Of a DNA stretch of 45,353 bases, positions 2,961 through 38,202 are shown in pieces (the stretch's first letter is position 1; every line of letters begins with the position of its first letter). Under the pieces are notes generated by a model. The model saw nothing but the letters and a program-made list of their open reading frames with translations. It made no database searches and had not been told where the DNA came from. Source of the DNA: Bacteroidota bacterium (GTDB lineage: Bacteria; Bacteroidota; Ignavibacteria; Palsa-1295); NCBI GenBank assembly GCA_021324685.1, contig JAJPIQ010000018.1, positions 1 through 45,353 of the forward strand. The letters run 5' to 3'. The translations under genes were made by a program, and so were the position numbers.

Positions 2961-5306
2961 GTGAAAGCGGTCTTTTTTCTGTTCTTTTTTCTGGCCTTCG
3001 CTTCGGAAGCGATATCGCAGTCCGTCGCAAGGATTTCCGTCGCCGGGGTTGTCACCGATAAAACGTCAGGCGAAATCATCATTGGGGCAGCGGCAACGCT
3101 TTTTAAAGACAGCACTCTGAGCGGGCATCCATTTCGAGGTGCCCTTACCAATAAGTTCGGATTTTTTTCCTTAGCAAAAATTCCCTCAGGCGACTATTGG
3201 CTCGCCGTAAGATCGCTTGGATACAAGCCGGAAATCGAGCGGATCACGATCGGCGAGCGCTCGCTCCGGCTCGATATCGCGCTCGCACCGGAGTCCGAGC
3301 AAAAGGAGGTGACGGTGTTGGGCGAAAGAACCCCGGCCCCGACGCGTTCGATCAGCTCCGTCGATGTGAAACCGGAAATGCTGCAACACCTGCCGTCGCT
3401 GGGCGGCGAGACCGATATTTTTCGCGCGCTGCAGCTCTTGCCAGGAATTAAATCGTCGAGTGAAATTTCGAGCGGGCTCTATGTGCGAGGCGGTTCCCCG
3501 GACCAAAATCTTACGTTGCTCGATGGCGTCATCGTCTATAATCCAACGCACCTTGCGGGGTTTATGAGCACGTTCAACTCCGATGCGATCCAGGATATTC
3601 ACCTCGTGAAAGGCGCGTTCCCGGCGGAATATGGCGGGCGCCTCTCGAGCGTTCTCGACCTGACGATGAAGGAGGGAACGAAAGAAAAGATCGAAGGAAC
3701 GGCGGGAATCAGCATGATCGATTCGCGGCTGACGCTCGAAGGACCGCTGTCGGACAATTCGACCTTCATGATCTCCGGACGCCGGATGTATCTCGATCTG
3801 CTGCTTGCCCTTGCCCCGAAGGATACCAACAATATCACGCCCGATTACTATTTTTACGATTTGAACGGCAAAGTCAATTTCAAACTTGGCGAGAACGACC
3901 GTCTGTTCCTCAGCGGCTATTTCGGGCGCGATGTGTTCGGCATTCCGGCTTCCACCGACTCGAATACCGCCAATATTTTCTGGGGCAATGCGACCGCCAA
4001 TATTCGGTGGTCGCACATTGTTTCGCCTTCGCTCTTTACGAATTTCAGTGCGATCTATACGAATTACGTTTCGAGCACCGATTTCGAAGATACGCATGCG
4101 GATGCAGCCAGCAATAATAATTTCAAGTCGGTGTCGGGCGTGACCGATTATATGGTGCGCGGAGAAGCACAATATTTTCCGAACGATGCCAATACGTTTA
4201 AATTCGGCTTCGAAGCGACCAATCATCGGTTCCGAGCCGATGCTTCCGCGAACATCGCACAGTTTGCAACGATCGACGAAAGTCCCACGATCTTTCGTTC
4301 GATCGATGCCGCGATCTACGGGCAGGACGAATGGAAGATTTCGCCGCAGCTTTCGAGTAATCTGGGAACCCGATTGTATTATTTTCAGGACGGCGGGTAC
4401 TTTCGCGTGGAGCCCCGGCTGGCGTTCGCCTATAATGTAACGGAGGACGTCCAGCTTACGACCGCATTCTCGGTCGGTAACCAGTTCTTACATCTCATCA
4501 CGCGCAACGACATCGCGCTGCCGACCGACGTGTGGTTCCCATCGACGGCAACCGTCAAGCCGGAAGAAGCCGTTCAGGGGGTGGTGGGGATGCAGACGCA
4601 CCTGTTCGATAACCAGTATTTCTTTTCGGTCGAGGCGTATTATAAGTCGATGTGGAACCTCTATGAGTATAAAGACACCGCCTCGTTCTCGCTCAATGTG
4701 CCGCTCGAATCGTCATTTACCAGCGGGACCGGGAAGGCCTACGGGATCGAATTTTTTCTCAATAAACAAGTCGGTAATTTTACCGGCTGGCTCGGGTATA
4801 CCCTTTCGTGGGTGATCGAAACGTTTCCGGAGCTTAATAATGGCCAGCCGTTTTATCCTCGGTATGACGAGCGGCACGATATTCAGGCGGTCCTGACCTA
4901 CCGACTGGGCGAGACGTGGGAACTTGGTGCCACCTGGACGTATGCCACCGGACAGGCGTATACGATGCCGACCGGGCAGTTCTCGCTCAGCCCGCCTCCG
5001 CAGGGACAAAATGGATATTCCTATTCCGACGACCAACTCGAATATACCGATCGAAACGCCTATCGGCTGCCGGCATTCCATAAACTCGATCTCAATTTTT
5101 CGCATTCGTTTTCATGGTTCCGGCTGCCATGGGAGGTGTCGATCAATATTTATAATGCGTACAACCATTTGAATACATTCGGCCAGTTCGTCGAACGGGG
5201 CGAGATCATCGACTCCCAGGGAAACTATACGCTGGGGCCGTATCAGGTGCATCGGATCACTTTGTTTCCCATTATTCCGACGTTTGGATTAAGCTGCAAG
5301 TTTTAA
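2961..5306 (+). CDS. TonB-dependent outer-membrane receptor with carboxypeptidase-like N-terminal domain
   Basis: Outer-membrane beta-barrel that would import a ligand using TonB energy. I chose the GTG at 2961 because it follows a GAAGGAG ribosome-binding site at 2951-2957 and gives an immediate Sec signal peptide (KAVFFLFFFLAFASEAISQS). An upstream in-frame GTG at 2913 would put 16 charged residues ahead of it. Residues ~23-113 are a carboxypeptidase regulatory-like beta-sandwich (GVVTDKTSGEIIIGA), ~150-236 the plug (LYVRGGSPDQNLTLLDGV, PAEYGGRLSSVLDL), and the rest a barrel of alternating aromatic strands ending FGLSCKF, with the usual terminal aromatic. At 781 aa it is typical for the family. 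A DUF4249 lipoprotein begins one base after the stop, the standard Bacteroidota pairing of receptor and surface lipoprotein. The ligand is unknown. Confidence 0.93.
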   Translation: MKAVFFLFFFLAFASEAISQSVARISVAGVVTDKTSGEIIIGAAATLFKDSTLSGHPFRGALTNKFGFFSLAKIPSGDYWLAVRSLGYKPEIERITIGERSLRLDIALAPESEQKEVTVLGERTPAPTRSISSVDVKPEMLQHLPSLGGETDIFRALQLLPGIKSSSEISSGLYVRGGSPDQNLTLLDGVIVYNPTHLAGFMSTFNSDAIQDIHLVKGAFPAEYGGRLSSVLDLTMKEGTKEKIEGTAGISMIDSRLTLEGPLSDNSTFMISGRRMYLDLLLALAPKDTNNITPDYYFYDLNGKVNFKLGENDRLFLSGYFGRDVFGIPASTDSNTANIFWGNATANIRWSHIVSPSLFTNFSAIYTNYVSSTDFEDTHADAASNNNFKSVSGVTDYMVRGEAQYFPNDANTFKFGFEATNHRFRADASANIAQFATIDESPTIFRSIDAAIYGQDEWKISPQLSSNLGTRLYYFQDGGYFRVEPRLAFAYNVTEDVQLTTAFSVGNQFLHLITRNDIALPTDVWFPSTATVKPEEAVQGVVGMQTHLFDNQYFFSVEAYYKSMWNLYEYKDTASFSLNVPLESSFTSGTGKAYGIEFFLNKQVGNFTGWLGYTLSWVIETFPELNNGQPFYPRYDERHDIQAVLTYRLGETWELGATWTYATGQAYTMPTGQFSLSPPPQGQNGYSYSDDQLEYTDRNAYRLPAFHKLDLNFSHSFSWFRLPWEVSINIYNAYNHLNTFGQFVERGEIIDSQGNYTLGPYQVHRITLFPIIPTFGLSCKF

Positions 5307-26946: not shown

Positions 26947-27070
26947 AAAAACACTATCAGAAAATAAAAAGCTCCGGACGAACCGGGGCCAAGGCCGCAT
27001 GATCGCTCATGCTACGCCTGTAGAATCATCTTTACTATGATAAGACGAAAATTTCGTAATTTGCAAACTG

Positions 27071-27100
27071 AAATAAAAATGCCCCGTTAAGGACGAGGCA
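27071..27100 (-). terminator. Terminator of the tracrRNA
   Basis: 8-bp stem (one G-T pair) at 27080-27100, followed on the minus strand by TTTTTATTT (27079-27071). Confidence 0.85.
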
Positions 27101-27160
27101 ACCTGCTGTGCAAAGCACTCTACGGAATGAATCCTTAATGTGATCTGCTTCAGATAACTA
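27071..27160 (-). ncRNA. tracrRNA: Predicted tracrRNA of the type II-C system
   Basis: On the minus strand, ATCTGAAGCAGATCACA (27155-27139) is complementary to the first part of the CRISPR repeat as read on the minus strand (TGTGATCTGCTTTCAGAT), with one bulged base in the crRNA. Downstream are GGA-TTCAT-TCC, a small hairpin GTGC-TTT-GCAC (27118-27108), then a terminator stem TGCCTCGT-CCTTA-ACGGGGCA (27100-27080) and TTTTTATTT. Anti-repeat, nexus-like stems and terminator in this order are what Cas9 requires of a tracrRNA. Length about 90 nt. It is transcribed away from cas9, its 5' end close to the cas9 start codon, so its promoter should lie at or within the first bases of cas9. The exact 5' end is not known. 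Confidence 0.82.
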
Positions 27161-27177
27161 ATACAACCAGACCTCCT

Positions 27178-30100
27178 ATGAAAAAGATTCTCGGCCTCGA
27201 CATCGGCACAAATTCGATTGGCGGCGCACTGATCGAACTCGATGATAAAAATTATGGCGAAGCAGGAAAGATTCTCTGGATGGGCAGCCGGATCATTCCC
27301 ACCGATACGAATTTGCTTCGGCAGTTCGAGACCGGCCAAAAGCTAAATTCCGGCACAACTTCAACTCCTGCTGCGGAACGAAGGGCGAAGCGAATGGCGC
27401 GCCGGATTAAAGAACGCTATGTTCTTCGACGCACACGACTTATACGCGCAATGAAGGTACTGGGCTGGCTCGATACCGAGTTCCCGGAAGATTTTAAGAA
27501 ATATTTCGACTCATTGGGCGAACAAACACACGAAGGAAAAACCTATCGAATCAGCGATGCGCTTTCTTTTTCAGAAGCTACCGTTCGAGAGGCAACAAAG
27601 TTACTCGGCGTTCCCTACCGAGAAAATAAGAAACGAACGTCATCGCAAAAGGCGCGAGTCAAAGTTTACGATAAACTTGTCGTACCAGAGGACTGGATTG
27701 TTTGGTATCTTCGAAAAAAGGCGCTTTCCGAACGAGTTACTAAATCCGAATTTGCGCGCATTCTTTATATGATGAACCAGCGGCGCGGGTTCAAGAGCGG
27801 CAGGAAGGATTTTAAAGAGCAGGGCGAAGAAAACGTGCTGCGGCAGTGGGTCGAGTTAGTCACGATTCAATCGGTCACAGAAGATAGCGATTACAAACCT
27901 GGAAAGGACGGAAAAAAACGATACCTCCTTATGGGGCACGGCGAAGAGAAGAATCGTGATTATACATGGGACGCAAAGCGATACAAAATGCCGGATTGGC
28001 AGGGCAAGTCGTACACACTTTTGCTTAGCGAGAAATTTGATGGGAAGAAATGGAAGTTCCTTACACCGCAAAACCCTACAGCGGATAACTGGAGCTTACA
28101 GATGGTATCGCTGGATAACCAACTCGACAAATCCGGGGATCATCCAGGGGAATTTTTCTTCCACCATTTAGCGACCGATAAAAACTACAAAATTCGCCAG
28201 CAGGTCGTTAAGAGGAAGAGGTATCAGGATGAACTGCGGACCATTTGGACCAAACAGCAAGAGTTGTGGGACGACGATCCCTCACCGGATAACCCACAAC
28301 TCGGAGACGCTTCGAAGCTGGAAGAACTTGCACGGACTCTTTATCCGGCGCAAAGCAAATTCGGCGGCCCGAAGTACAAAGAAATTGTCGCGAACGATTT
28401 GTTTCACGCAATTGCGGACGATATTATTTATTATCAGCGGGATTTGAAGTCCCAGAAAGATTCCGTTTCCGGTTGCCGGTACGAGAAACTATACTTTATT
28501 AAAAAAGGAGATACGCGATCTGTCGGGCGCAAGGCGGCGCCGATTTCTTCTCCGGAATACCAGGAGTTCCGAATCTGGCAGGACATTCATAATATCCGTG
28601 CGATCGAGAAAGAAGCGGTACGCACGAACGAAATTTTACCTGACAACGGCCAAAAGCAAGCACTTTTCCAATTTTTCGAAACACATGAATCGGTCTCTGA
28701 AAACGACATCCTGAAAATAATGGGATTGTTGCAGGAGAAGAAAAAAGGCGCTGAATCGAATTATAAAATCAACCTTTTTGCAAACCGCACTTCCCTTAAA
28801 GGGAATGAAACAAAAGACCGCTTTCGAAAACTGTTCCAGAAGCATAGCTGGAGCGACGGATTATCGCTTCTCGATAACCGAGACATCCTTAACCATTTTT
28901 GGCATATCGCTTACTCCATACCGCAGTACGACACAGATTCCAATACTGCAAATGGTCGTGCGAACGCTTTGAAAAAATGGGCAAAGCAAAACGTAAAGAA
29001 CTCTGATCGGAAGGAAATTGCTTCGATTGGTGAAGTTCCGGTACCGGTCGTCAAAGCAATATCCATCATGCCGGATTTCCCGGATGGATATGCGGCTCTC
29101 AGTCTCAAAGCGATCCGAAAGCTTCTCCCGCTAATGAGGATTGGGGATTGGGAATGGAAGAATATAGATGAAAGTACGCAAAAGCGAATCGACCATGTGC
29201 TCTCGATTGCTTCGGACCGTACAAAGATTAAGCATGAGACCGATACCGATACGTATGTCGATACCACGACCGGCGAAATTCTCGAAAAACAGGTCTATCA
29301 GTATATTCGTAAGCACGGCTTTACCGACCGTAACCAATTTCAGGGATTGCCGATGTATATGGCTGCTTATGTTGTCTATGGCCGTCACTCGGAACAGGAA
29401 GAAGTTCCAAAGTACAACACGCCAGATGACATCGACGTGATGAAGCTCGTTCCCAACCGCGCATTCAATAATCCCATCGTCGAGAAGGTCATCCGTGAAA
29501 CGCTTTGCATCGTGCGCGATCTCTGGAAATCGAATTCGGACTGGAGGCCGGACGAAATTCATATCGAACTGGCGCGGGAACTCAAGAAGAATGCCAAAGA
29601 GCGCGAAGAAATTACAAGAAGAAATAAATCGGACCGCGAAGAAAAAGAACGAATTCGTGTTATTTTGCGAGAGCTATTGAACGATCCCCATGCCTTCGCC
29701 GGAAACACAAGACCCAATCCCGATGCTCCTAAAGACGTTGAGAAATTCCGCCTTTGGATGCAGCAGGCTGAAAATAAACCGGAAGAATTGTACGAGCCGT
29801 CTGGGAATCAAGTCCAGCGATATCGCTTATGGCTTGAACAAGAATGTTTCTCTCCATACACAGGCAAACCAATTCCTCTTAGCAGACTTTTTACAGAAGA
29901 GTATGATGTTGACCATATTTTGCCCCGTTCCCGCATCAAAATGGATGGTATGGATAATCTCGTCGTTGTCGAGCATGACGTAAACCGGCCTGGAGATGGA
30001 GACGGAAAGGGAAATGATACGGCAGCGCAATATATTAAGCGTATGGCTGGAAGGAAAGTTAAAGGCCATAGTATTCTTACTTGGGATGACTATGAGGCGC

Positions 30101-31920
30101 GCTGTAGGCGTACTTACAAGGGATCGAAACTAAAAAATCTTTTACGCGAAGATGTTCCAGATGATTTTATTCTGCGCCAATTAAATGATACTCGCCACAT
30201 CACCCGCAAAGTGTCGCAAATGCTCAAACCTATTGCAAAAGCGCAGGAAGGTCTTGTCTGTACCACTGGTTCAATTACGAGCGATCTCAAAAATCTTTGG
30301 GGTTTGAACGATGTCTGGAAGGATATTCTCAAACCACGATTCGAGCGTCTGGAACGACTCGGGATGGGTCAGTTCATTTTCCCGGATGACGAACATCCCG
30401 GGCGTTATCATTTCCGGGTTCCCGATCAGCCGGACTTTGAGTCTAAAAGGATCGACCATCGTCATCACGCACTCGATGCGCTCATTATCGCAGCCACGAC
30501 GAGAGGTCACGTTAAATATTTGAACACGCTAAATGCCGAAGAATCAGATACAGAATTAAGACAGCTTCGAACATCGCTCGTTGTCGATGGAGCGACGCCA
30601 CGAAGTCGCAAATTCAAGACGCCCTGGAAACAAGAGGATTTTTGCAGAGAAGCGAAAAAAAATCTAGAGGGAATCATCGTAAGCTTCAAACAGCAGAAGC
30701 CGCCAATCTCTAAACCTTCGAATAAGCGGCAGAAGTGGATCGAAAAAAATGGAAAATGGCAGAAAGAGCTTATCGAGCAGAAGCCAAACTCACGCTGGAT
30801 TGCGGTGCGCCGTTCCATGTTTAAGCAGCCGCAAGGCGTGATACTTCTAAAAATGAAGCGCATTTTAAACGAGAAGCAATTTCTTAGTGCATTTGAAATC
30901 GAACTTGCCTACATGAAGGCCCAGGACACACCCAATCAGCGGACTGCATCGTATATTTACGATAAGAGCGCTCGGCAAACCGTTCGAGATATTATCTTTA
31001 AAACGAATGGCGATCTTGCCGCAATCAAAAAACATCTGAGAACCAATGGCTTGACTAACTTATCGGGTGAAAAAATTACTCAAGTTCGAATCGCGGAATT
31101 CGAGGAATATGCCGCAAAACGCGTGGCTGTCGATGGTTCGTTTACTGAGGATAAAATCGATAAGATTCCATACGCTGCGGCTGCGCGCATAAATACAGAT
31201 AAAAAGTTTACGGAAAAAGAAATGGAAAAGTATGCAACTCGAGCATTAGAGAACCCTTATGCGCCAAGAGAAAATGTGCGAACTTTATCAACTAAATTAC
31301 GTGCTCACTTACTGGCTTTTGGTGGAGATCCCAAGCAAGCTTTTGCTTCTCCTGAAGGGTCCGAAGCTCTGACAAAGAGTATAGGGCAACCAATCCATAA
31401 GATCACTACGTTCGAGAATTCCTCAAGCCCTAAGTATGGCAACGCGTTCATTGAATCCGATAATAACCCTTACTTTATTATTTTCGAAAACCGCGAGACC
31501 AAGAGCCGTTCGGATAAGGGTTATAAAATGCATTCGATGTCCATCGTTGAGGTAGTGAATCGGAAGCTTCAGGGTCTTCCAATTGTCGAAGAACCCGAGG
31601 CGTATAGGGTCATTCTCCTCAAAAATGATGATTTTGTGTACGTTCCTACGACTGACGAGATTGTTAACCCGGCATTAATTCCCTGGTCAAATGCCAACAA
31701 ACTGGCACCTCGATTATATCAGGTATCGAAATTCACTGGCACCGACTGTTATTTTATTCGCCACGACATCTCAAAGTTAATTACACAAGGGGAGCTAGGA
31801 ACTCAAAATTGTCTTCAAACCACAATGAACGAAGGAGAAGAGAAAGTGTACATCAAGAATGTATGCATTAAAATTACAATTGATCGGCTCGGTAATATAG
31901 CACCTGTTCTAGAACGATGA
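27178..31920 (+). CDS. cas9: CRISPR-associated endonuclease Cas9, type II-C
   Basis: RNA-guided double-strand DNA nuclease. At 1580 aa it is much longer than compact II-C enzymes (about 1000-1100 aa) but close to large Cas9s known from Bacteroidota/Ignavibacteria. RuvC-I: LGLDIGTNSIG with Asp8. Arginine-rich bridge helix at ~60-90 (AERRAKRMARRIKERYVLRR). RuvC-II: IHIELARELKKN with Glu797. HNH: YDVDHILPRS with His913 and Asn in the NLVVVEHDVNR region. RuvC-III: DHRHHALDAL with His1097 and Asp1100. All catalytic residues are present. About 480 residues follow RuvC-III and should hold the wedge and PAM-interacting domains. Starts about 17 nt from the divergent tracrRNA. Its TGA overlaps the cas1 ATG (ATGA). 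No cas4 or csn2 is present, hence II-C. No frameshift or missing motif seen; it looks functional. Confidence 0.97.
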   Translation: MKKILGLDIGTNSIGGALIELDDKNYGEAGKILWMGSRIIPTDTNLLRQFETGQKLNSGTTSTPAAERRAKRMARRIKERYVLRRTRLIRAMKVLGWLDTEFPEDFKKYFDSLGEQTHEGKTYRISDALSFSEATVREATKLLGVPYRENKKRTSSQKARVKVYDKLVVPEDWIVWYLRKKALSERVTKSEFARILYMMNQRRGFKSGRKDFKEQGEENVLRQWVELVTIQSVTEDSDYKPGKDGKKRYLLMGHGEEKNRDYTWDAKRYKMPDWQGKSYTLLLSEKFDGKKWKFLTPQNPTADNWSLQMVSLDNQLDKSGDHPGEFFFHHLATDKNYKIRQQVVKRKRYQDELRTIWTKQQELWDDDPSPDNPQLGDASKLEELARTLYPAQSKFGGPKYKEIVANDLFHAIADDIIYYQRDLKSQKDSVSGCRYEKLYFIKKGDTRSVGRKAAPISSPEYQEFRIWQDIHNIRAIEKEAVRTNEILPDNGQKQALFQFFETHESVSENDILKIMGLLQEKKKGAESNYKINLFANRTSLKGNETKDRFRKLFQKHSWSDGLSLLDNRDILNHFWHIAYSIPQYDTDSNTANGRANALKKWAKQNVKNSDRKEIASIGEVPVPVVKAISIMPDFPDGYAALSLKAIRKLLPLMRIGDWEWKNIDESTQKRIDHVLSIASDRTKIKHETDTDTYVDTTTGEILEKQVYQYIRKHGFTDRNQFQGLPMYMAAYVVYGRHSEQEEVPKYNTPDDIDVMKLVPNRAFNNPIVEKVIRETLCIVRDLWKSNSDWRPDEIHIELARELKKNAKEREEITRRNKSDREEKERIRVILRELLNDPHAFAGNTRPNPDAPKDVEKFRLWMQQAENKPEELYEPSGNQVQRYRLWLEQECFSPYTGKPIPLSRLFTEEYDVDHILPRSRIKMDGMDNLVVVEHDVNRPGDGDGKGNDTAAQYIKRMAGRKVKGHSILTWDDYEARCRRTYKGSKLKNLLREDVPDDFILRQLNDTRHITRKVSQMLKPIAKAQEGLVCTTGSITSDLKNLWGLNDVWKDILKPRFERLERLGMGQFIFPDDEHPGRYHFRVPDQPDFESKRIDHRHHALDALIIAATTRGHVKYLNTLNAEESDTELRQLRTSLVVDGATPRSRKFKTPWKQEDFCREAKKNLEGIIVSFKQQKPPISKPSNKRQKWIEKNGKWQKELIEQKPNSRWIAVRRSMFKQPQGVILLKMKRILNEKQFLSAFEIELAYMKAQDTPNQRTASYIYDKSARQTVRDIIFKTNGDLAAIKKHLRTNGLTNLSGEKITQVRIAEFEEYAAKRVAVDGSFTEDKIDKIPYAAAARINTDKKFTEKEMEKYATRALENPYAPRENVRTLSTKLRAHLLAFGGDPKQAFASPEGSEALTKSIGQPIHKITTFENSSSPKYGNAFIESDNNPYFIIFENRETKSRSDKGYKMHSMSIVEVVNRKLQGLPIVEEPEAYRVILLKNDDFVYVPTTDEIVNPALIPWSNANKLAPRLYQVSKFTGTDCYFIRHDISKLITQGELGTQNCLQTTMNEGEEKVYIKNVCIKITIDRLGNIAPVLER

Positions 31921-32978
31921 TCCGCCGCACGCTCTATTTCGGGAACCCTGCGTATCTTTCGACGAAAGACAATCAGCTTGTCATCGAGCGCGATACCCCC
32001 TCCTCTGGAAGAGGAGGGGGAAGGGGGTGGAGTTATGGAGAGGATGTCGAGGACACCACCCCCCGGCCCCCTCCTCTTCCAGAGGAGGGGGAGAGTGTGA
32101 TGCGCGTTCCTATCGAAGACATCGGCTGCATCCTGCTCGATCACTGGCAAATCACAATTACGCAGCCGCTTTTGTATGCTCTGCTGGCAAAGAATATCGC
32201 GGTCGTAAGCTGCGATGAGCGGCACATGCCCGCGGGTTTGTTTTTACCGCTGGCCGCAAGTGGTGTACAGCCCGAACGATTCAAATACCAGCTTCGGTCT
32301 TCCAAGCCGATGCGAAAAAACCTATGGGCGCAAACTATTGAATATAAAGTAAAAAATCAGGCGTCGCTCCTTGCCCTTGCCGGAAAACCATCGTCCAATA
32401 TGGTGAAGTGGTCGGCAGAAGTTCGTTCCGGAGACGCTCGGAACCTCGAAGGGCGCGCGGCGGTCTATTATTGGGCCAATATTTTCCCCGAAGCGCTGAA
32501 TTTTCGGCGCGACCGGTACGGCGAACCGCCCAATAATCTTCTAAATTATGGCTATGCGATCTTACGGGCGTTGACGGCACAGGCGCTCGTCGCCAGTGGA
32601 ATGCTTCCCACGCTCGGAATTCACCATCGTAACAAATACAATGCGTACCCCTTGGCCGATGATATTATGGAACCCTATCGCCCGTTCTTAGATGCAATTG
32701 TACTGGAAATCGTCCGGAACGGTGAGGACTTTACGGAACTATCGAAATCGATCAAGCAACAACTTCTTTCGCTGGCAACAGTGGACGTTATGATGAGAGG
32801 TAAACGGCGGCCGTTACACGTCGCATTACAATACACGGCTGCTTCCCTCGCCTTTTGTTTTTTGGGTGAGCGCCGCAGAATTTTATATCCCGAGTTCCCA
32901 TTCGGAACGGAAACCAATTCCCCTACACTTTTACGGGATTGGAGAAATACCCCCTCCTCTGGAAGAGGAGGGGGTTAG
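31917..32978 (+). CDS. cas1: Cas1 integrase with in-frame repeat insertion and repeat-derived C-terminus
   Basis: Metal-dependent spacer integrase. It overlaps cas9 by 4 nt. Conserved type II Cas1 sequence: RRTLYFGNPAYLSTKDNQLV, VPIEDIGCILLDHWQITITQ, catalytic Glu178 (NLEGRAAVYYW), His236/237 and Asp248/249 (GIHHRNKYNAYPLADDIMEP). Two oddities. Residues ~27-58 (TPSSGRGGGRGWSYGEDVED, then TTPRPPPLPEEG) come from a 96-bp inverted-repeat element lying in the loop between two N-terminal beta-strands; as 32 codons it keeps frame. The C-terminal residues (NTPSSGRGGG) and the TAG stop come from the left arm of the DUF559 element, so the native end has been replaced. The catalytic domain is intact, so activity is plausible but unproven. 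Confidence 0.94.
   Translation: MIRRTLYFGNPAYLSTKDNQLVIERDTPSSGRGGGRGWSYGEDVEDTTPRPPPLPEEGESVMRVPIEDIGCILLDHWQITITQPLLYALLAKNIAVVSCDERHMPAGLFLPLAASGVQPERFKYQLRSSKPMRKNLWAQTIEYKVKNQASLLALAGKPSSNMVKWSAEVRSGDARNLEGRAAVYYWANIFPEALNFRRDRYGEPPNNLLNYGYAILRALTAQALVASGMLPTLGIHHRNKYNAYPLADDIMEPYRPFLDAIVLEIVRNGEDFTELSKSIKQQLLSLATVDVMMRGKRRPLHVALQYTAASLAFCFLGERRRILYPEFPFGTETNSPTLLRDWRNTPSSGRGGG
31996..32091 (+). repeat. 96-bp inverted-repeat (MITE-like) element inside cas1
   Basis: Two 25-nt arms, exact reverse complements of each other (31996-32020 and 32067-32091), each itself a hairpin (CCCCCTCCTCT, GGA, then AGAGGAGGGGG). Inward of each arm is a GGGGGTGG-type extension (32021-32032; 32055-32066), leaving a 21-nt centre. 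The arms match those of the DUF559 element between cas1 and cas2. No clear target-site duplication. Length divisible by three, no stop codon in the cas1 frame. Confidence 0.9.
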
Positions 32979-33441
32979 GGGGTGGAGCGCTTCAGGAATG
33001 AAAAAAGATCGCACACGGACCGCAATCCGAAGGAAACTCCGCAACAGCGCGACGTTTGCGGAACGCATTTTATGGTACTCGCTCCGCGGAAGCCAACTCG
33101 ACGGACGAAAATTTACGCGGCAAAAAGGAATCGGCCCATACATTGTGGATTTCTACTGTGCCGAGGAGAAGCTTGCGATCGAACTGGACGGATCGGTCCA
33201 TGACGAGCCCGAGGTGCAGCGTTACGACCAGGCCCGCGAAGAATTTCTATGCCGCGAAGGCGTGAAGGTCTTGCGGTTCAAGAACGATGAGTTTCTTGAG
33301 AATGGAGATCGCGTGATCGCCGCGATTCGGAAGATATGGTCGGGCCGCGAACGCCCGGTTACCGTGCGGCCGGAACGATCGCGGAAACATCGTTCCCAGA
33401 AGACTCCACCCCCTAACCCCCTCCTCTTACAGAGGAGGGGG
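32950..33441 (+). mobile_element. DUF559 endonuclease element bounded by 38-bp inverted repeats
   Basis: The left arm is 32950-32987 and the right arm 33404-33441. As inverted repeats they match at 37 of 38 bases. Each begins with a palindromic CCCCCTCCTCT...AGAGGAGGGGG hairpin and continues TTAGGGGGTGGAG. The 416 nt between them is almost entirely the DUF559 gene. A partial extra copy of the right hairpin (33457-33476) joins it to cas2. I call it mobile because of the gene-plus-terminal-repeats layout and the related copies nearby; the mechanism of movement is not known and no transposase is present. Confidence 0.7.
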
Positions 33442-33480
33442 AACAGTAGTCGCAATCCTGTTACAGAGGAGGGGGAATAA
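32998..33480 (+). CDS. DUF559 (Vsr-like PD-(D/E)XK) endonuclease inserted between cas1 and cas2
   Basis: A 160-aa protein of the DUF559 family, related to very-short-patch-repair endonucleases. Core: RRKLRNSATFAERILWYSLR, GSQLDGRKFTRQKGIGPYIV, DFYCAEEKLAIELDGSVHDE, VKVLRFKNDEFLENGDRVIA. The candidate nuclease residues are the Asp of IVDFYC and Glu/Asp of IELDG. The ATG at 32998 was chosen because it sits just inside the left repeat arm and begins the conserved MKKDRTRTAIRRKLR; the frame extends upstream into cas1 only through repeat sequence. The last ~25 residues (TPPPNPLLLQRRGNSSRNPV...) are a translation of the right repeat and likely not functional. Its TAA overlaps the cas2 ATG by one base (TAATG), so it is translated within the cas operon. 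Not a recognised cas gene. Confidence 0.9.
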   Translation: MKKDRTRTAIRRKLRNSATFAERILWYSLRGSQLDGRKFTRQKGIGPYIVDFYCAEEKLAIELDGSVHDEPEVQRYDQAREEFLCREGVKVLRFKNDEFLENGDRVIAAIRKIWSGRERPVTVRPERSRKHRSQKTPPPNPLLLQRRGNSSRNPVTEEGE

Positions 33481-33818
33481 TGCAGAATTCACGATTTAAC
33501 GAATACCGAACATTGTGGACCATGGTGCTCTTCGATCTTCCCGTCAAAACGAAGAAAGACCGGAAGGAATACGCAAAGTTCCGAAAGTCGCTTCAGAAAG
33601 ACGGCTTCGAACTCTTTCAATTTTCGACCTACGTGCGACACTCCTTTAGCCGGGAGAATGCTGACGTGCATAAAAGGCGTGTAAAGTACGCTCTGCCTCC
33701 GAAAGGCAAAGTCGGGATTCTGACGATCACCGATAAGCAATTCGGCTTAATGGAGCTATTCAACGGTCAATCTCAGATGGAAGCCGAACGACCGCCTCAG
33801 CAATTAGATATGTTCTAA
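33480..33818 (+). CDS. cas2: Cas2, type II-C
   Basis: Small ferredoxin-fold partner of Cas1 in the adaptation complex. The 112-aa chain is typical of type II-C Cas2: RFNEYRTLWTMVLFDLPVKT with the conserved Asp19, KKDRKEYAKFRKSLQKDGFE, STYVRHSFSRENADVHKRRV, GILTITDKQFGLMELF, and the terminal PPQQLDMF. The start ATG overlaps the stop of the inserted DUF559 gene. The chain itself is undisturbed by repeats; a decayed repeat copy starts 3 nt after its stop. Confidence 0.95.
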   Translation: MQNSRFNEYRTLWTMVLFDLPVKTKKDRKEYAKFRKSLQKDGFELFQFSTYVRHSFSRENADVHKRRVKYALPPKGKVGILTITDKQFGLMELFNGQSQMEAERPPQQLDMF

Positions 33819-33820
33819 CT

Positions 33821-33866
33821 CCCCCTCCTCAGTAGCGAAGCGCAAGAAGAGGGGGCTCGGGATGGA
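33821..33866 (+). repeat. Decayed solo copy of the DUF559-element terminal repeat
   Basis: Begins CCCCCTCCTC and ends GAGGGGG followed by CTCGGGATGGAG, the same outline as the element arms, but the hairpin centre is expanded by AGTAGCGAAGCGCAAGA. It lies immediately after cas2. Confidence 0.7.
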
Positions 33867-33894
33867 GTGCACGTGCCCCCGCTCCAATTTTTTT
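33851..33894 (+). terminator. Possible terminator of the cas operon
   Basis: GGGGGC (33851-33856) can pair with GCCCCC (33875-33880), with GTGCAC nested inside, and a run of seven T follows at about 33888. The stem overlaps the decayed repeat. The 6-nt gap to the T-run makes it uncertain. Confidence 0.4.
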
Positions 33895-33945
33895 ATCGTG
33901 TTTGTGCCTCTAACTCCTTTATTTTCAATAACTTAGCGTGATCGC
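33886..33945. promoter_or_regulatory. AT-rich leader-like region at the cas2 end of the array
   Basis: About 60 nt, T-rich (ATTTTTTTATCGTGTTTG, CCTTTATTTTCAATAACTTA), directly before the first repeat. This end has only canonical repeats, while the far end has the mutated one, so it is the likely site of new-spacer integration. Confidence 0.5.
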
Positions 33946-36347
33946 ACTGTAACCATAAAACTCGAAAAACAATCTGAAAGCAGATCACAGCTCAGTTCGG
34001 GTTGTCACTCCCGGACATCATACTGTAACCATAAAACTCGAAAAACAATCTGAAAGCAGATCACAGCGGACAATGGCGTCCGTGCCATAGGCGGCCGACT
34101 GTAACCATAAAACTCGAAAAACAATCTGAAAGCAGATCACAGCTCCGTTCGGGTTGTCACTCCCGGACATCATACTGTAACCATAAAACTCGAAAAACAA
34201 TCTGAAAGCAGATCACAGCGATCTTCGGCCAATACTCGCGGAGTCGATGACTGTAACCATAAAACTCGAAAAACAATCTGAAAGCAGATCACAGCCGACA
34301 ACTCTATATGCCTTGTCAATCATTTACTGTAACCATAAAACTCGAAAAACAATCTGAAAGCAGATCACAGCGCCTTCGAGTGCGTCGTGTGACTTCGGTC
34401 TACTGTAACCATAAAACTCGAAAAACAATCTGAAAGCAGATCACAGCCCGTGGGCCGGGGTGCCGCTCGCGGTAACGACTGTAACCATAAAACTCGAAAA
34501 ACAATCTGAAAGCAGATCACAGCGGGAACTCCGGCCTGTTCCATCGCGAGGCCACTGTAACCATAAAACTCGAAAAACAATCTGAAAGCAGATCACAGCT
34601 CCAGCCTTTCAGGACCGGCAGATAATCGGACTGTAACCATAAAACTCGAAAAACAATCTGAAAGCAGATCACAGCTATTCTCGACGCTTGCGCTTGCGGC
34701 ATACGACTGTAACCATAAAACTCGAAAAACAATCTGAAAGCAGATCACAGCCAAATCGCAATAACCCGATGATCTGGCCTTACTGTAACCATAAAACTCG
34801 AAAAACAATCTGAAAGCAGATCACAGCGACGTATTGACGTAGTATTAAGCGGATGTAACTGTAACCATAAAACTCGAAAAACAATCTGAAAGCAGATCAC
34901 AGCCCTTTCGCCTTAGAGTGATTCCGAGAAAATACTGTAACCATAAAACTCGAAAAACAATCTGAAAGCAGATCACAGCCGGATCGTGCGGATATTTATT
35001 TGGCATCTTACTGTAACCATAAAACTCGAAAAACAATCTGAAAGCAGATCACAGCTGGCATGCACAAATCCCCGTCCGGGTCGTGACTGTAACCATAAAA
35101 CTCGAAAAACAATCTGAAAGCAGATCACAGCGGTAAATGGCGTAATGACACATTCACATATACTGTAACCATAAAACTCGAAAAACAATCTGAAAGCAGA
35201 TCACAGCGCCCCGCATCGCTGGCGCGGCTCGTTCCTTACTGTAACCATAAAACTCGAAAAACAATCTGAAAGCAGATCACAGCCATCGGTCGCACCCACA
35301 GCGACTCCTTCTCACTGTAACCATAAAACTCGAAAAACAATCTGAAAGCAGATCACAGCTTAACATGTTGGTAGTGTTTTGATTTTAAGACTGTAACCAT
35401 AAAACTCGAAAAACAATCTGAAAGCAGATCACAGCGCGGAGGTCGGACATTAATGCAGAGTAGAGACTGTAACCATAAAACTCGAAAAACAATCTGAAAG
35501 CAGATCACAGCGAGTTTTCCGTCCGCTGTCGTATATGCTTCACTGTAACCATAAAACTCGAAAAACAATCTGAAAGCAGATCACAGCTTGTCGGTGAGAG
35601 TTCCCAGCCTTTTGCGTACTGTAACCATAAAACTCGAAAAACAATCTGAAAGCAGATCACAGCCCATAGTTCCCGGGCTTCTGGCGACATTCCACTGTAA
35701 CCATAAAACTCGAAAAACAATCTGAAAGCAGATCACAGCATTCGTCGCGCGTTGCATCGGCGACCATGAACTGTAACCATAAAACTCGAAAAACAATCTG
35801 AAAGCAGATCACAGCGTCCGAAGTGTCCTGATAATGTCCGCCAAGACTGTAACCATAAAACTCGAAAAACAATCTGAAAGCAGATCACAGCATAAAATTG
35901 GTCGGAGCGCGATGTGGTCACACTGTAACCATAAAACTCGAAAAACAATCTGAAAGCAGATCACAGCTTCTTCGTCTGTCGTGGCGGCAGTTCCGATACT
36001 GTAACCATAAAACTCGAAAAACAATCTGAAAGCAGATCACAGCTCGCGTCGACCGGCAGATAGGTGAGATTATACTGTAACCATAAAACTCGAAAAACAA
36101 TCTGAAAGCAGATCACAGCCGAGCGTGGCGCGCGGCACAAGTACCTGGAACTGTAACCATAAAACTCGAAAAACAATCTGAAAGCAGATCACAGCGGATA
36201 GCTCTTCGCGCGTGATGGTACCCGAACTGTAACCATAAAACTCGAAAAACAATCTGAAAGCAGATCACAGCGCCGGGGCCAGCATCCGAGGATCGGATTA
36301 GACTATAACCATAAAACTCGAAAAACAATCTGAAAGCAGATCACAGC
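33946..36347 (-). CRISPR. CRISPR array, 32 repeats of 46 nt and 31 spacers of 30 nt
   Basis: The unit recurs every 76 nt without exception: (36302-33946)/76 = 31. On the plus strand the repeat begins ACTGTAACCATAAAACTCG and ends GAAAGCAGATCACAGC; on the minus strand it begins GCTGTGATCTGCTTTCAGAT. Pairing with the tracrRNA implies crRNAs are read from the minus strand (guide followed by GCTGTGATC...). All repeats I read are identical except the last (36302), which has ACTATAACC for ACTGTAACC, marking the old end. Spacers 1 (33992-34021) and 3 (34144-34173) differ at one base. At the minus-strand 3' end of each repeat, TTGTTT-N15-TACAGT could act as a per-repeat promoter, as in some II-C arrays; this is inference. 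Spacer targets cannot be identified without a database search. Confidence 0.98.
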
Positions 36348-36410: not shown

Positions 36411-36540
36411 TAAGCCATCGGGGGCTTACGCCCCCCCTACTATTATGCCGTCCCTTCGGGACTCGGGGCCAGCGTTCGGTCTTGCGACCGGTGCTTGAAA
36501 CCACCGGCTACTCTTTTGTCGTCCCTTCGGGACTTAGCGG
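36411..36540 (-). repeat. Palindromic repeat block, right border of the CRISPR-Cas locus
   Basis: On the minus strand: AGTCCCGAAGGGACGAC, GAGTAGCCGGTGG...CACCGGT, CCCCGAGTCCCGAAGGGAC, GGCATAATAGTAGGGGGG, and the hairpin GGGGGC-GTAA-GCCCCC. This is the order found on the plus strand at 26835-26946, so the two blocks are inverted relative to each other. The 3' end of the neighbouring membrane-protein gene runs into it and takes its TAG stop from it. Confidence 0.7.
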
Positions 36541-38202
36541 CGCTTTACGCCGATAGAACCAGGCAGTGAGGAGGATTAGGATGGTGAGCGCGCTTAGCCA
36601 GGTACCGGCGATTTGCGGGGCGCCGGGTTGCATTGTGAGCGCAAGAGTATAATTCCCGGCGGGAAGCGATGCTTCCACGCGACCCATTGCGTTCATGCGG
36701 AGTGGGATATTCGTTCCCGAGGATGTCGCGGCCTTCCAGGTGGGCCAATAGGTGCGGTCGAACGGGAAAGAGCGTGGTGCGGTAAGGGAAACCGCATACT
36801 GGGAACCGAGCGGCTCATGACGGATTTCCTGGATCGGCTCATGACGGATTTCCTGGATCGGCTCATGACGGATTTCCTGGATCGGCTCATGACGGATTTC
36901 CTGGATCGGCTCATGACGGATTTCCGCGACCCGCTCCCCTGGAGATAACGGCTCCGTTTTTTCGTCCACAGTTTTTGGGAGCGAAAGTGTATATTCGCCC
37001 GGAGTGTCCCATTCCGCGTTCTGAACTTCTATCGCCGGCGTCGAACGATGGTGTACCGACCATTTTACTTCGTAGTAACCCGAAACGATCACGAGCGCCC
37101 CGACCGCTATTATGAGATATGTTCGTTCCCGTGCGCCCAGCGTAAGATAAGCAAGCGGAAATGCAAGGCAGAAGAGTGCCGTAAAGCGGACCGGATATAC
37201 GATCGCATCGAGGACATGCCCGTTCCACAGCGGATCGGCAATCCACGGAAGTTGGAAGACCGCGGCGAGCGCCAGCAGTCCGGGAACCGCTTTGTTGGCG
37301 GACTTGCGCGCGACCGCAATCGAAGCAATTCCGACGATAAGAATGATCGAGGGAAGCAAAATGCTTTCGGTACGGCTCTGCGTGAGGAAATATAAGGGGT
37401 ACCGGAATTCATTCGGGTACCGAAAAACATTTCCGTGCTGAATAAGGGGTAGATAGGCAAATAACGGCACGAGATAAAACGACGTGGCGAGCGCTCCCAA
37501 TACGCTCGCAAGTGCGATGCGTGAAATCGTTCCGGTTGTTAACGGGACCCTGAGCAATACATAGGGAACGAACGCGATCGCGACAATCGCTGTCATCGGG
37601 ATGCTCGTGACGATTAACGCGGCCCAGGAAACGGCGAGCAGCACGAGCGGCCTGGTGCTCGTCCGGTTATTTACGGCGTCGCTTCGGATCTTTTCGACGG
37701 CAAGAAAGATGAGCGGGATCCAAATAAACGAAACGTGCTCGCTGAATGCCGAGCGCAAATACGCGTCCACGAATCGGTATGGGAACCCCGCATACAGCAG
37801 GGCAGCGGACCATCGCTCCAGTTTCGATTCGCTGAACACTTCGCTGTACCCATAAAACGATAGCGCGCTCGCCACGGTCGCAAAAAATGTGACCGACTGA
37901 AGAAGCCCGTTCGGAGAAAGGGAATGAAAATAAAAGTGGACCGTCCATGCGGCAAAGTAAGCGAACGGAGGGTAAAAGTAAAAGATCGGAGCGCCGAAGC
38001 CGTGCTGAAAATCGCTGAAAAAGCGAGGATAAAAAATTCCGGCGTCCTTGAGCTTATTGAATTCCGCAATCCATTGCAGGTGCAGGACCGCATCGTCGCC
38101 GATCACCGGCATCCCAGCCAGCGAGGGAACGATCATCAGCAGAAACAAGGCCAGGGCAAGGACAAAAAACAAGGTCTCTGCAAACCGGTTCTTATCGATC
38201 AT
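36508..38202 (-). CDS. Multi-pass membrane protein, PTPS-related (PF10131-like)
   Basis: A 564-aa inner-membrane protein with about ten to twelve hydrophobic segments. The N-terminal part HLQWIAEFNKLKDAGIFYPR and FSDFQHGFGAPIFYFYPPFA matches the pattern of the '6-pyruvoyl-tetrahydropterin synthase-related' membrane family, structurally akin to GT-C glycosyltransferases; the short acidic motif GDDAVLH early in the chain would be the catalytic-type loop. Residues ~450-490 hold a tandem octapeptide EIRHEPIQ (four times plus EIRHEPLG). One C-terminal helix (LSALTILILLTAWFY) ends the protein. The last eight residues (SPEGTTKE) and the stop are encoded by the adjacent palindromic repeat, so the original C-terminus may be altered. 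Ten nt separate it from the upstream mtgA stop, suggesting an operon. Substrate unknown. Confidence 0.75.
   Translation of the reverse strand: MIDKNRFAETLFFVLALALFLLMIVPSLAGMPVIGDDAVLHLQWIAEFNKLKDAGIFYPRFFSDFQHGFGAPIFYFYPPFAYFAAWTVHFYFHSLSPNGLLQSVTFFATVASALSFYGYSEVFSESKLERWSAALLYAGFPYRFVDAYLRSAFSEHVSFIWIPLIFLAVEKIRSDAVNNRTSTRPLVLLAVSWAALIVTSIPMTAIVAIAFVPYVLLRVPLTTGTISRIALASVLGALATSFYLVPLFAYLPLIQHGNVFRYPNEFRYPLYFLTQSRTESILLPSIILIVGIASIAVARKSANKAVPGLLALAAVFQLPWIADPLWNGHVLDAIVYPVRFTALFCLAFPLAYLTLGARERTYLIIAVGALVIVSGYYEVKWSVHHRSTPAIEVQNAEWDTPGEYTLSLPKTVDEKTEPLSPGERVAEIRHEPIQEIRHEPIQEIRHEPIQEIRHEPIQEIRHEPLGSQYAVSLTAPRSFPFDRTYWPTWKAATSSGTNIPLRMNAMGRVEASLPAGNYTLALTMQPGAPQIAGTWLSALTILILLTAWFYRRKAPLSPEGTTKE
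36812..36930 (-). repeat. 24-bp in-frame tandem repeat, four full copies plus one partial
   Basis: The unit GGCTCATGACGGATTTCCTG GATC (plus strand) starts at 36812, 36836, 36860 and 36884, followed by a partial copy at 36908. It encodes EIRHEPIQ on the minus strand. Copies are identical, so the expansion is recent or kept uniform. Confidence 0.95.

What the first reader, a model, noticed from the sequence alone, without database searches (positions are those of the whole stretch)
33992..34173. Spacers 1 and 3 are the same 30-mer except one base, in the predicted seed
Spacers 1 (33992-34021) and 3 (34144-34173) match at 29 of 30 bases; the difference is the third base (A at 33994, C at 34146). 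Read as crRNA on the minus strand this is third from the repeat-proximal end, i.e. in the PAM-proximal seed of Cas9. Both lie at the leader end. This is what one expects if a phage escaped spacer 3 by a seed mutation and the cell then acquired the updated sequence as spacer 1, with spacer 2 in between.
Basis: partly seen in the sequence, partly recalled or inferred. Interest (0 to 1): 0.66.

Follow-up and report, generated by a model that had tools for sequence, protein, structure and literature searches.

The report
Type II-C array records seed update
Two of the newest memories in a bacterial CRISPR-Cas9 array are the same sequence except for one base where Cas9 is least forgiving, and a survey of related arrays shows that such near-twins tend to differ at that end, as expected if invaders escape by mutation and the cell then records the changed version.

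Summary
In a 32-repeat type II-C array (33946-36347), spacers 1 and 3 match at 29/30 bases, differing at + base 3 (A33994/C34146). The orientation claim holds: a tracrRNA-like sequence lies on the minus strand at 27163-27058, upstream of an intact cas9, and its anti-repeat pairs with the repeat end next to that base. The difference is therefore third from the PAM side, in the seed. The cas2 side is the young end, since the only mutated full repeat is at the far end. No protospacer was found in any collection searched, so the escape story is not proven for this pair. A survey of 99 same-phylum Cas9-linked arrays (2,856 spacers) found 13 further near-identical pairs outside one aberrant array. 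Their mismatches are skewed to the PAM-proximal end (mean position 10.4; permutation p=0.002; p=0.018 with the aberrant array included). Multi-mismatch pairs show codon periodicity (p=0.008), and two pairs have shifted or different-length ends. This favours two captures of one protospacer from two variants, most simply a seed escape followed by an update. Duplication plus mutation, and sequence error, are less likely but not excluded. Mechanism known; within-array pattern possibly unreported.

The parts
33992..34021 (-). Spacer 1 (newest); crRNA sense ATGATGTCCGGGAGTGACAACCCGAACTGA
   Evidence: 29/30 identical to spacer 3
33994..33994 (-). Variable base, A on + (T in crRNA sense), third from the PAM-proximal end
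34144..34173 (-). Spacer 3 (third newest); crRNA sense ATGATGTCCGGGAGTGACAACCCGAACGGA
34146..34146 (-). Variable base, C on + (G in crRNA sense)
34068..34097 (-). Spacer 2, unrelated, between the two
33946..36347 (-). CRISPR array: 32 repeats of 46 nt, 31 spacers of 30 nt; crRNA strand is minus
36302..36347 (-). Oldest full repeat, one substitution (ACTATAACC); followed by a further spacer-like stretch and a degenerate repeat remnant
33819..33945 (.). Leader-side intergenic region between cas2 and the first repeat (acquisition end)
   Evidence: polarity from the mutated far end and PMC12080349
27058..27163 (-). tracrRNA-like sequence: anti-repeat, then stem-loops, GC-rich terminal hairpin and T-run; fold z-score -3.5
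27139..27155 (-). Anti-repeat pairing with the 5' end of the crRNA repeat (UGUGAUCUGCUUUCAGAU)
27178..31920 (+). cas9, 1580 aa, intact; RuvC (GLDIG, HIELARELK, DHRHHALDA) and HNH (DVDHILP) motifs present
31917..32978 (+). cas1 (type II family TIGR03639)
33480..33818 (+). cas2

Best explanation
Spacers 1 and 3 are two separate captures, by a type II-C CRISPR-Cas9 system that looks intact, of the same 30-nt protospacer from two sequence variants of one invader lineage. The variants differ at the third base from the PAM, where Cas9 tolerates mismatches poorly. The simplest history is: capture as spacer 3; capture of an unrelated spacer 2; a variant that escapes spacer 3 by the seed change; capture of that variant at the same PAM as spacer 1. 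Shown: the sequences, the orientation, the seed position, the polarity, and that similar seed-skewed pairs occur in other arrays of the phylum. Inferred: that the source was a phage or other mobile element, that the change caused escape, and the order of the variants in the invader.
For: 29/30 identity with identical boundaries. The tracrRNA anti-repeat puts the difference at seed position 3. Cas9 motifs are intact. In II-C, new spacers join at the end where both lie (PMC12080349). Survey of 99 arrays, 2,856 spacers: the 13 other near-identical pairs outside L052 have mismatches skewed to the PAM-proximal end (mean position 10.4, permutation p about 0.002; 18 of 33 mismatches in the first 10 positions against 11.2 expected, p 0.01). 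The three other single-mismatch pairs lie at positions 1, 5 and 8. Pairs with several mismatches show codon-phase bias (p 0.008), as expected if the differences arose in coding DNA of the invader and not in the array. Two pairs share sequence but have different lengths or shifted ends (L031 83/111, L074 38/43), which duplication would not produce. In the window, none of 28 inner repeats (1,288 bases) is mutated.
Against: No protospacer for either version in IMG/VR exact scans, GTDB genome contigs, phage or plasmid records, 100 relatives or its own genome. With a single mismatch, this pair alone cannot show codon bias or shifted ends. The survey is small, was designed after seeing the first hits, and its strength depends on leaving out one aberrant array (L052) with mutated repeats (still p about 0.018 with it). 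The PAM is unknown.
Confidence: 0.6

Rival explanations
1. Two captures of the same protospacer from variants that merely co-circulated: the seed difference is neutral diversity and spacer 3 was never escaped.
For: Several survey pairs have multiple, codon-phased differences that look like ordinary divergence between related invaders. One base carries no history.
Against: The skew of mismatches to the PAM-proximal end in other arrays is not expected of neutral diversity; this difference lies at position 3.
Confidence: 0.18
2. Array recombination duplicated one spacer-repeat unit, and one copy then took a point mutation in the host chromosome.
For: Exact duplicate spacers are common in the survey (49 pairs, often tandem or in blocks). 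Array L052 shows duplicates with scattered mutations.
Against: A simple tandem duplication does not put spacer 2 between the copies. The inner-repeat substitution rate in the arrays examined is 3.8e-4 per base (0 in 1,288 in this array), giving about 0.02 expected changes in 60 spacer bases (repeats may be under selection, so this is a guide). Mutated copies in L052 have an even mismatch distribution (p 0.46), unlike the other pairs.
Confidence: 0.13
3. Sequencing or assembly error in one copy of a truly duplicated spacer; a C-to-A/G-to-T change is also a common oxidation artefact (own knowledge).
For: The genome is a draft of 89 contigs and reads are not available.
Against: The rest of the array is clean (31 identical repeats), and the error would have to hit one of 60 bases and fall in the seed. 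Similar pairs occur in independent assemblies.
Confidence: 0.07

Closest known systems
Type II-C CRISPR-Cas9 (cas9-cas1-cas2, repeat-internal transcription, e.g. Neisseria, Campylobacter, Riemerella)
   Same: Gene order, type II Cas1 family, minus-strand crRNA relative to cas genes, young end by cas2, mutated oldest repeat, tracrRNA next to cas9 (PMC12080349)
   Different: 46-nt repeats, a 1580-aa Cas9 and a DUF559 gene between cas1 and cas2; details, not a new subtype
Phage escape by seed or PAM mutation and host counter-acquisition (S. thermophilus, S. aureus type II-A experiments; PMC6452269, PMC7105378)
   Same: Escape changes fall in the 6-8 nt seed or the PAM, and hosts add spacers afterwards
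   Different: In the S. aureus experiments second spacers come mostly from near the first target; here the same protospacer appears to be recorded again with the changed base
Seed-biased spacer-protospacer mismatches in natural Sulfolobus viruses (PMC6452263)
   Same: Mismatches are enriched near the PAM in natural populations
   Different: There host spacers are compared with virus genomes, in an archaeon with other CRISPR types; here two spacers of one array are compared, so no virus genome is needed

Membership tests
Type II-C CRISPR-Cas | Intact Cas9 with RuvC and HNH motifs | tested here: met
   TIGR01865 404 bits; PF18541, PF13395; catalytic motifs read in the translation
Type II-C CRISPR-Cas | cas1 and cas2 present, no csn2 or cas4 in the operon | tested here: met
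   TIGR03639 Cas1, TIGR01573 Cas2; only DUF559 in addition between cas9 and the array
Type II-C CRISPR-Cas | tracrRNA with anti-repeat to the repeat's 5' end | tested here: met
   27058-27163 minus; duplex about -25 kcal/mol with the repeat; fold z -3.5; no Rfam match
Type II-C CRISPR-Cas | Array transcribed towards the acquisition end, oldest repeat mutated | tested here: met
   Mutated repeat at 36302, crRNA strand minus, cas2 at the other end; transcription itself not measured
Seed escape followed by spacer update | Two spacers from one protospacer differing in the seed | tested here: met
   Position 3 from the PAM side
Seed escape followed by spacer update | Two invader variants carrying the two alleles beside the same PAM | tested here: inconclusive
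   No protospacer found in any collection
Seed escape followed by spacer update | Spacer 3 fails and spacer 1 works against the variant | not testable with these tools
   Needs an interference assay
Spacer duplication by array recombination | Exact, often tandem or block-wise copies | tested here: not met
   Copies differ, are not adjacent, and neighbours are not copied

The most novel reading that the evidence does not exclude
Type II-C arrays keep a genome-only record of escape and update: near-identical spacers in one array differ preferentially in the seed, so the immune history and the escape positions can be read from the host genome without any virus sequence.
Probability: 0.5. Interest if true: 0.6.

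Novelty: new member of a known kind. Interest (0 to 1): 0.45.

Why it matters
How often natural bacteria re-record a mutated target rather than capture a new one is an open question, usually blocked by missing virus genomes. Pairs such as this, with a seed-position bias across unrelated arrays, make it testable from host genomes alone, and would give natural seed maps for uncharacterised Cas9 proteins.

Tried and rejected
Protospacer searches all failed: viral contigs 22-mer and 20-mer, a codon-degenerate version of one reading frame, spacer 2, genome contigs, phages and plasmids with this spacer and the spacer set, and 100 relatives at up to 3 mismatches. Protospacers of four survey pairs were also not found in viral contigs, nor ten survey-pair spacers in phages (one weak 23-nt chance-level hit). 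Named Cas9 relatives were not found in genome contigs. An attempt to orient arrays by automatic anti-repeat search was confounded by palindromic repeats and second arrays, so a repeat 5'-end consensus was used; the mutated repeat lay at the predicted old end in 38 arrays and at the new end in 4. Near-copies in L040 at 4231-4588 were a tandem repeat, not an array, and dropped out. Transcription of crRNA on the + strand was considered and rejected: the anti-repeat would then pair with the repeat end far from the guide's 3' end, and the tracrRNA would run into cas9.

Full report
OBSERVATION. The array runs from 33946 to 36347: 32 repeats of 46 nt and 31 spacers of exactly 30 nt. Spacers 1 and 3 differ only at the third + base, A33994 against C34146. 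No other spacer pair is closer than 14 mismatches, and a chance match of this kind has a probability of about 4e-14. All repeats are identical except the last full one (36302, one change); beyond it lie a spacer-like stretch and a degenerate repeat remnant.

SURROUNDINGS. Upstream, on the + strand, are cas9 (27178-31920, TIGR01865, 1580 aa, RuvC and HNH motifs present), cas1 (type II family TIGR03639), a DUF559 gene and cas2. This is a type II-C layout.

ORIENTATION. The + strand at 27139-27155 matches the reverse complement of the repeat. The minus strand from 27163 to 27058 therefore begins with an anti-repeat and continues with stem-loops, a GC-rich hairpin and a T-run; its fold energy is 3.5 standard deviations below shuffles. 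The anti-repeat pairs near the start of the repeat as read on the minus strand (about -25 kcal/mol). Pairing energy alone does not decide the strand, since the mirror duplex is equally stable. Two points do: Cas9 systems pair the repeat end next to the spacer's 3' end (established knowledge of type II systems), and the other reading would run the tracrRNA into cas9. crRNA is therefore the minus strand, the PAM lies on the + upstream side of each spacer, and the variable base is third from it. The seed of type II systems is the 6-8 nt next to the PAM (PMC7105378).

POLARITY. In II-C systems new spacers enter through the last transcribed repeat, and the first, oldest repeat accumulates mutations (PMC12080349). 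Here the mutated repeat is at 36302 and the cas2 side is the last transcribed end, so spacer 1 is newest and spacer 3 third newest.

PROTOSPACERS. None was found for either version: IMG/VR, GTDB contigs, phages and plasmids, 100 relatives including its own genome with up to 3 mismatches. The two alleles are synonymous in one open frame (SVRVVTPGHH) and not in others, but the frame is unknown.

SURVEY. Because the single pair cannot prove the history, the question was asked of other arrays. Cas9-bearing loci of the same phylum were fetched; 99 arrays with 2,856 spacers, the window's included, were read and oriented by the repeat's 5' consensus. The orientation rule is supported by the position of mutated repeats (old end 38, new end 4, tie 57). 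Outside L052 there are 13 distinct pairs with 1-4 mismatches besides the window's own: for example L034 11/12 (positions 3, 6 from the PAM side), L063 14/30 (5), L069 38/41 (1), L074 41/48 (5, 6), L038 28/40 (6, 10, 17), L095 13/19 (3, 9, 21, 24).

With the window left out, the mean mismatch position is 10.4 of 30 (permutation p about 0.002), and 18 of 33 mismatches lie in the first ten positions against 11.2 expected (p 0.01). In the seven pairs with up to three mismatches, setting aside one low-complexity pair, 9 of 12 lie in the first eight (3.2 expected, p 0.0006). With L052 included, the mean-position p is 0.018; without both L052 and the repetitive L031 array it is about 0.0002. In L084 a distal length change was counted as an indel and only its position-8 substitution was scored. 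These tests were framed after the first hits were seen and should be repeated on a larger, pre-set sample.

CONTROLS. L052 is an array in which repeats and spacers are both mutated (20 substitutions in 1,656 inner repeat bases against 11 in 28,674 in the other arrays examined). Its near-copies differ evenly along the spacer (p 0.46). That is what mutated or mis-sequenced duplicates look like, and it is unlike the other pairs. Pairs with several mismatches are biased to one codon phase (29 of 42, 23.9 expected, p 0.008), pointing to change in coding DNA of the source. Two pairs have the same sequence with a different length or an end shifted by one base (L031 83/111, L074 38/43), which copying within the array would not produce.

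CONCLUSION. Two captures of one protospacer from two variants is best supported, with seed escape followed by update as the simplest cause. The capture part is more secure than the escape part. Mutated duplication and error remain possible for this one pair. The process is known in principle from experiments (PMC6452269, PMC7105378) and from virus-host comparison in Sulfolobus (PMC6452263). Text searches found no report of seed bias between spacers of one array, but that library lacks most subscription journals.

Noticed in passing
34600-34629 (spacer 9) and 36044-36073 (spacer 28): Both spacers match the organism's own chromosome at 30/30 bases: a PNGase-F-like secreted protein (C5:41759-41788) and a glycosyltransferase fusion (C13:35445-35474). 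The PAM-side flanks (AGCGGCTTA, CCTACGAGG) share no motif, perhaps why the cell tolerates them.
   Followed up: partly
34600-34629 and 36044-36073: The same two self-matching spacers share the 12-mer TATCTGCCGGTC at different offsets, encoding YLPV in two unrelated genes; possibly chance.
   Followed up: no
32866-33480: A DUF559 gene sits between cas1 and cas2, its open frame overlapping the end of cas1; unusual for II-C.
   Followed up: no
36784-36960: 24-base tandem repeat, about five copies, inside the minus-strand reading frame 36508-38202, which has no Pfam match.
   Followed up: no
L052:12800-15808: An II-C array in which repeats carry about 30 times more substitutions than in the other arrays examined and spacers exist as mutated copies; assembly error or a hypermutated array.
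   Followed up: partly
L043:12575-15204: A block of five spacers (9-13) recurs exactly as 18-22: clear array duplication.
   Followed up: no
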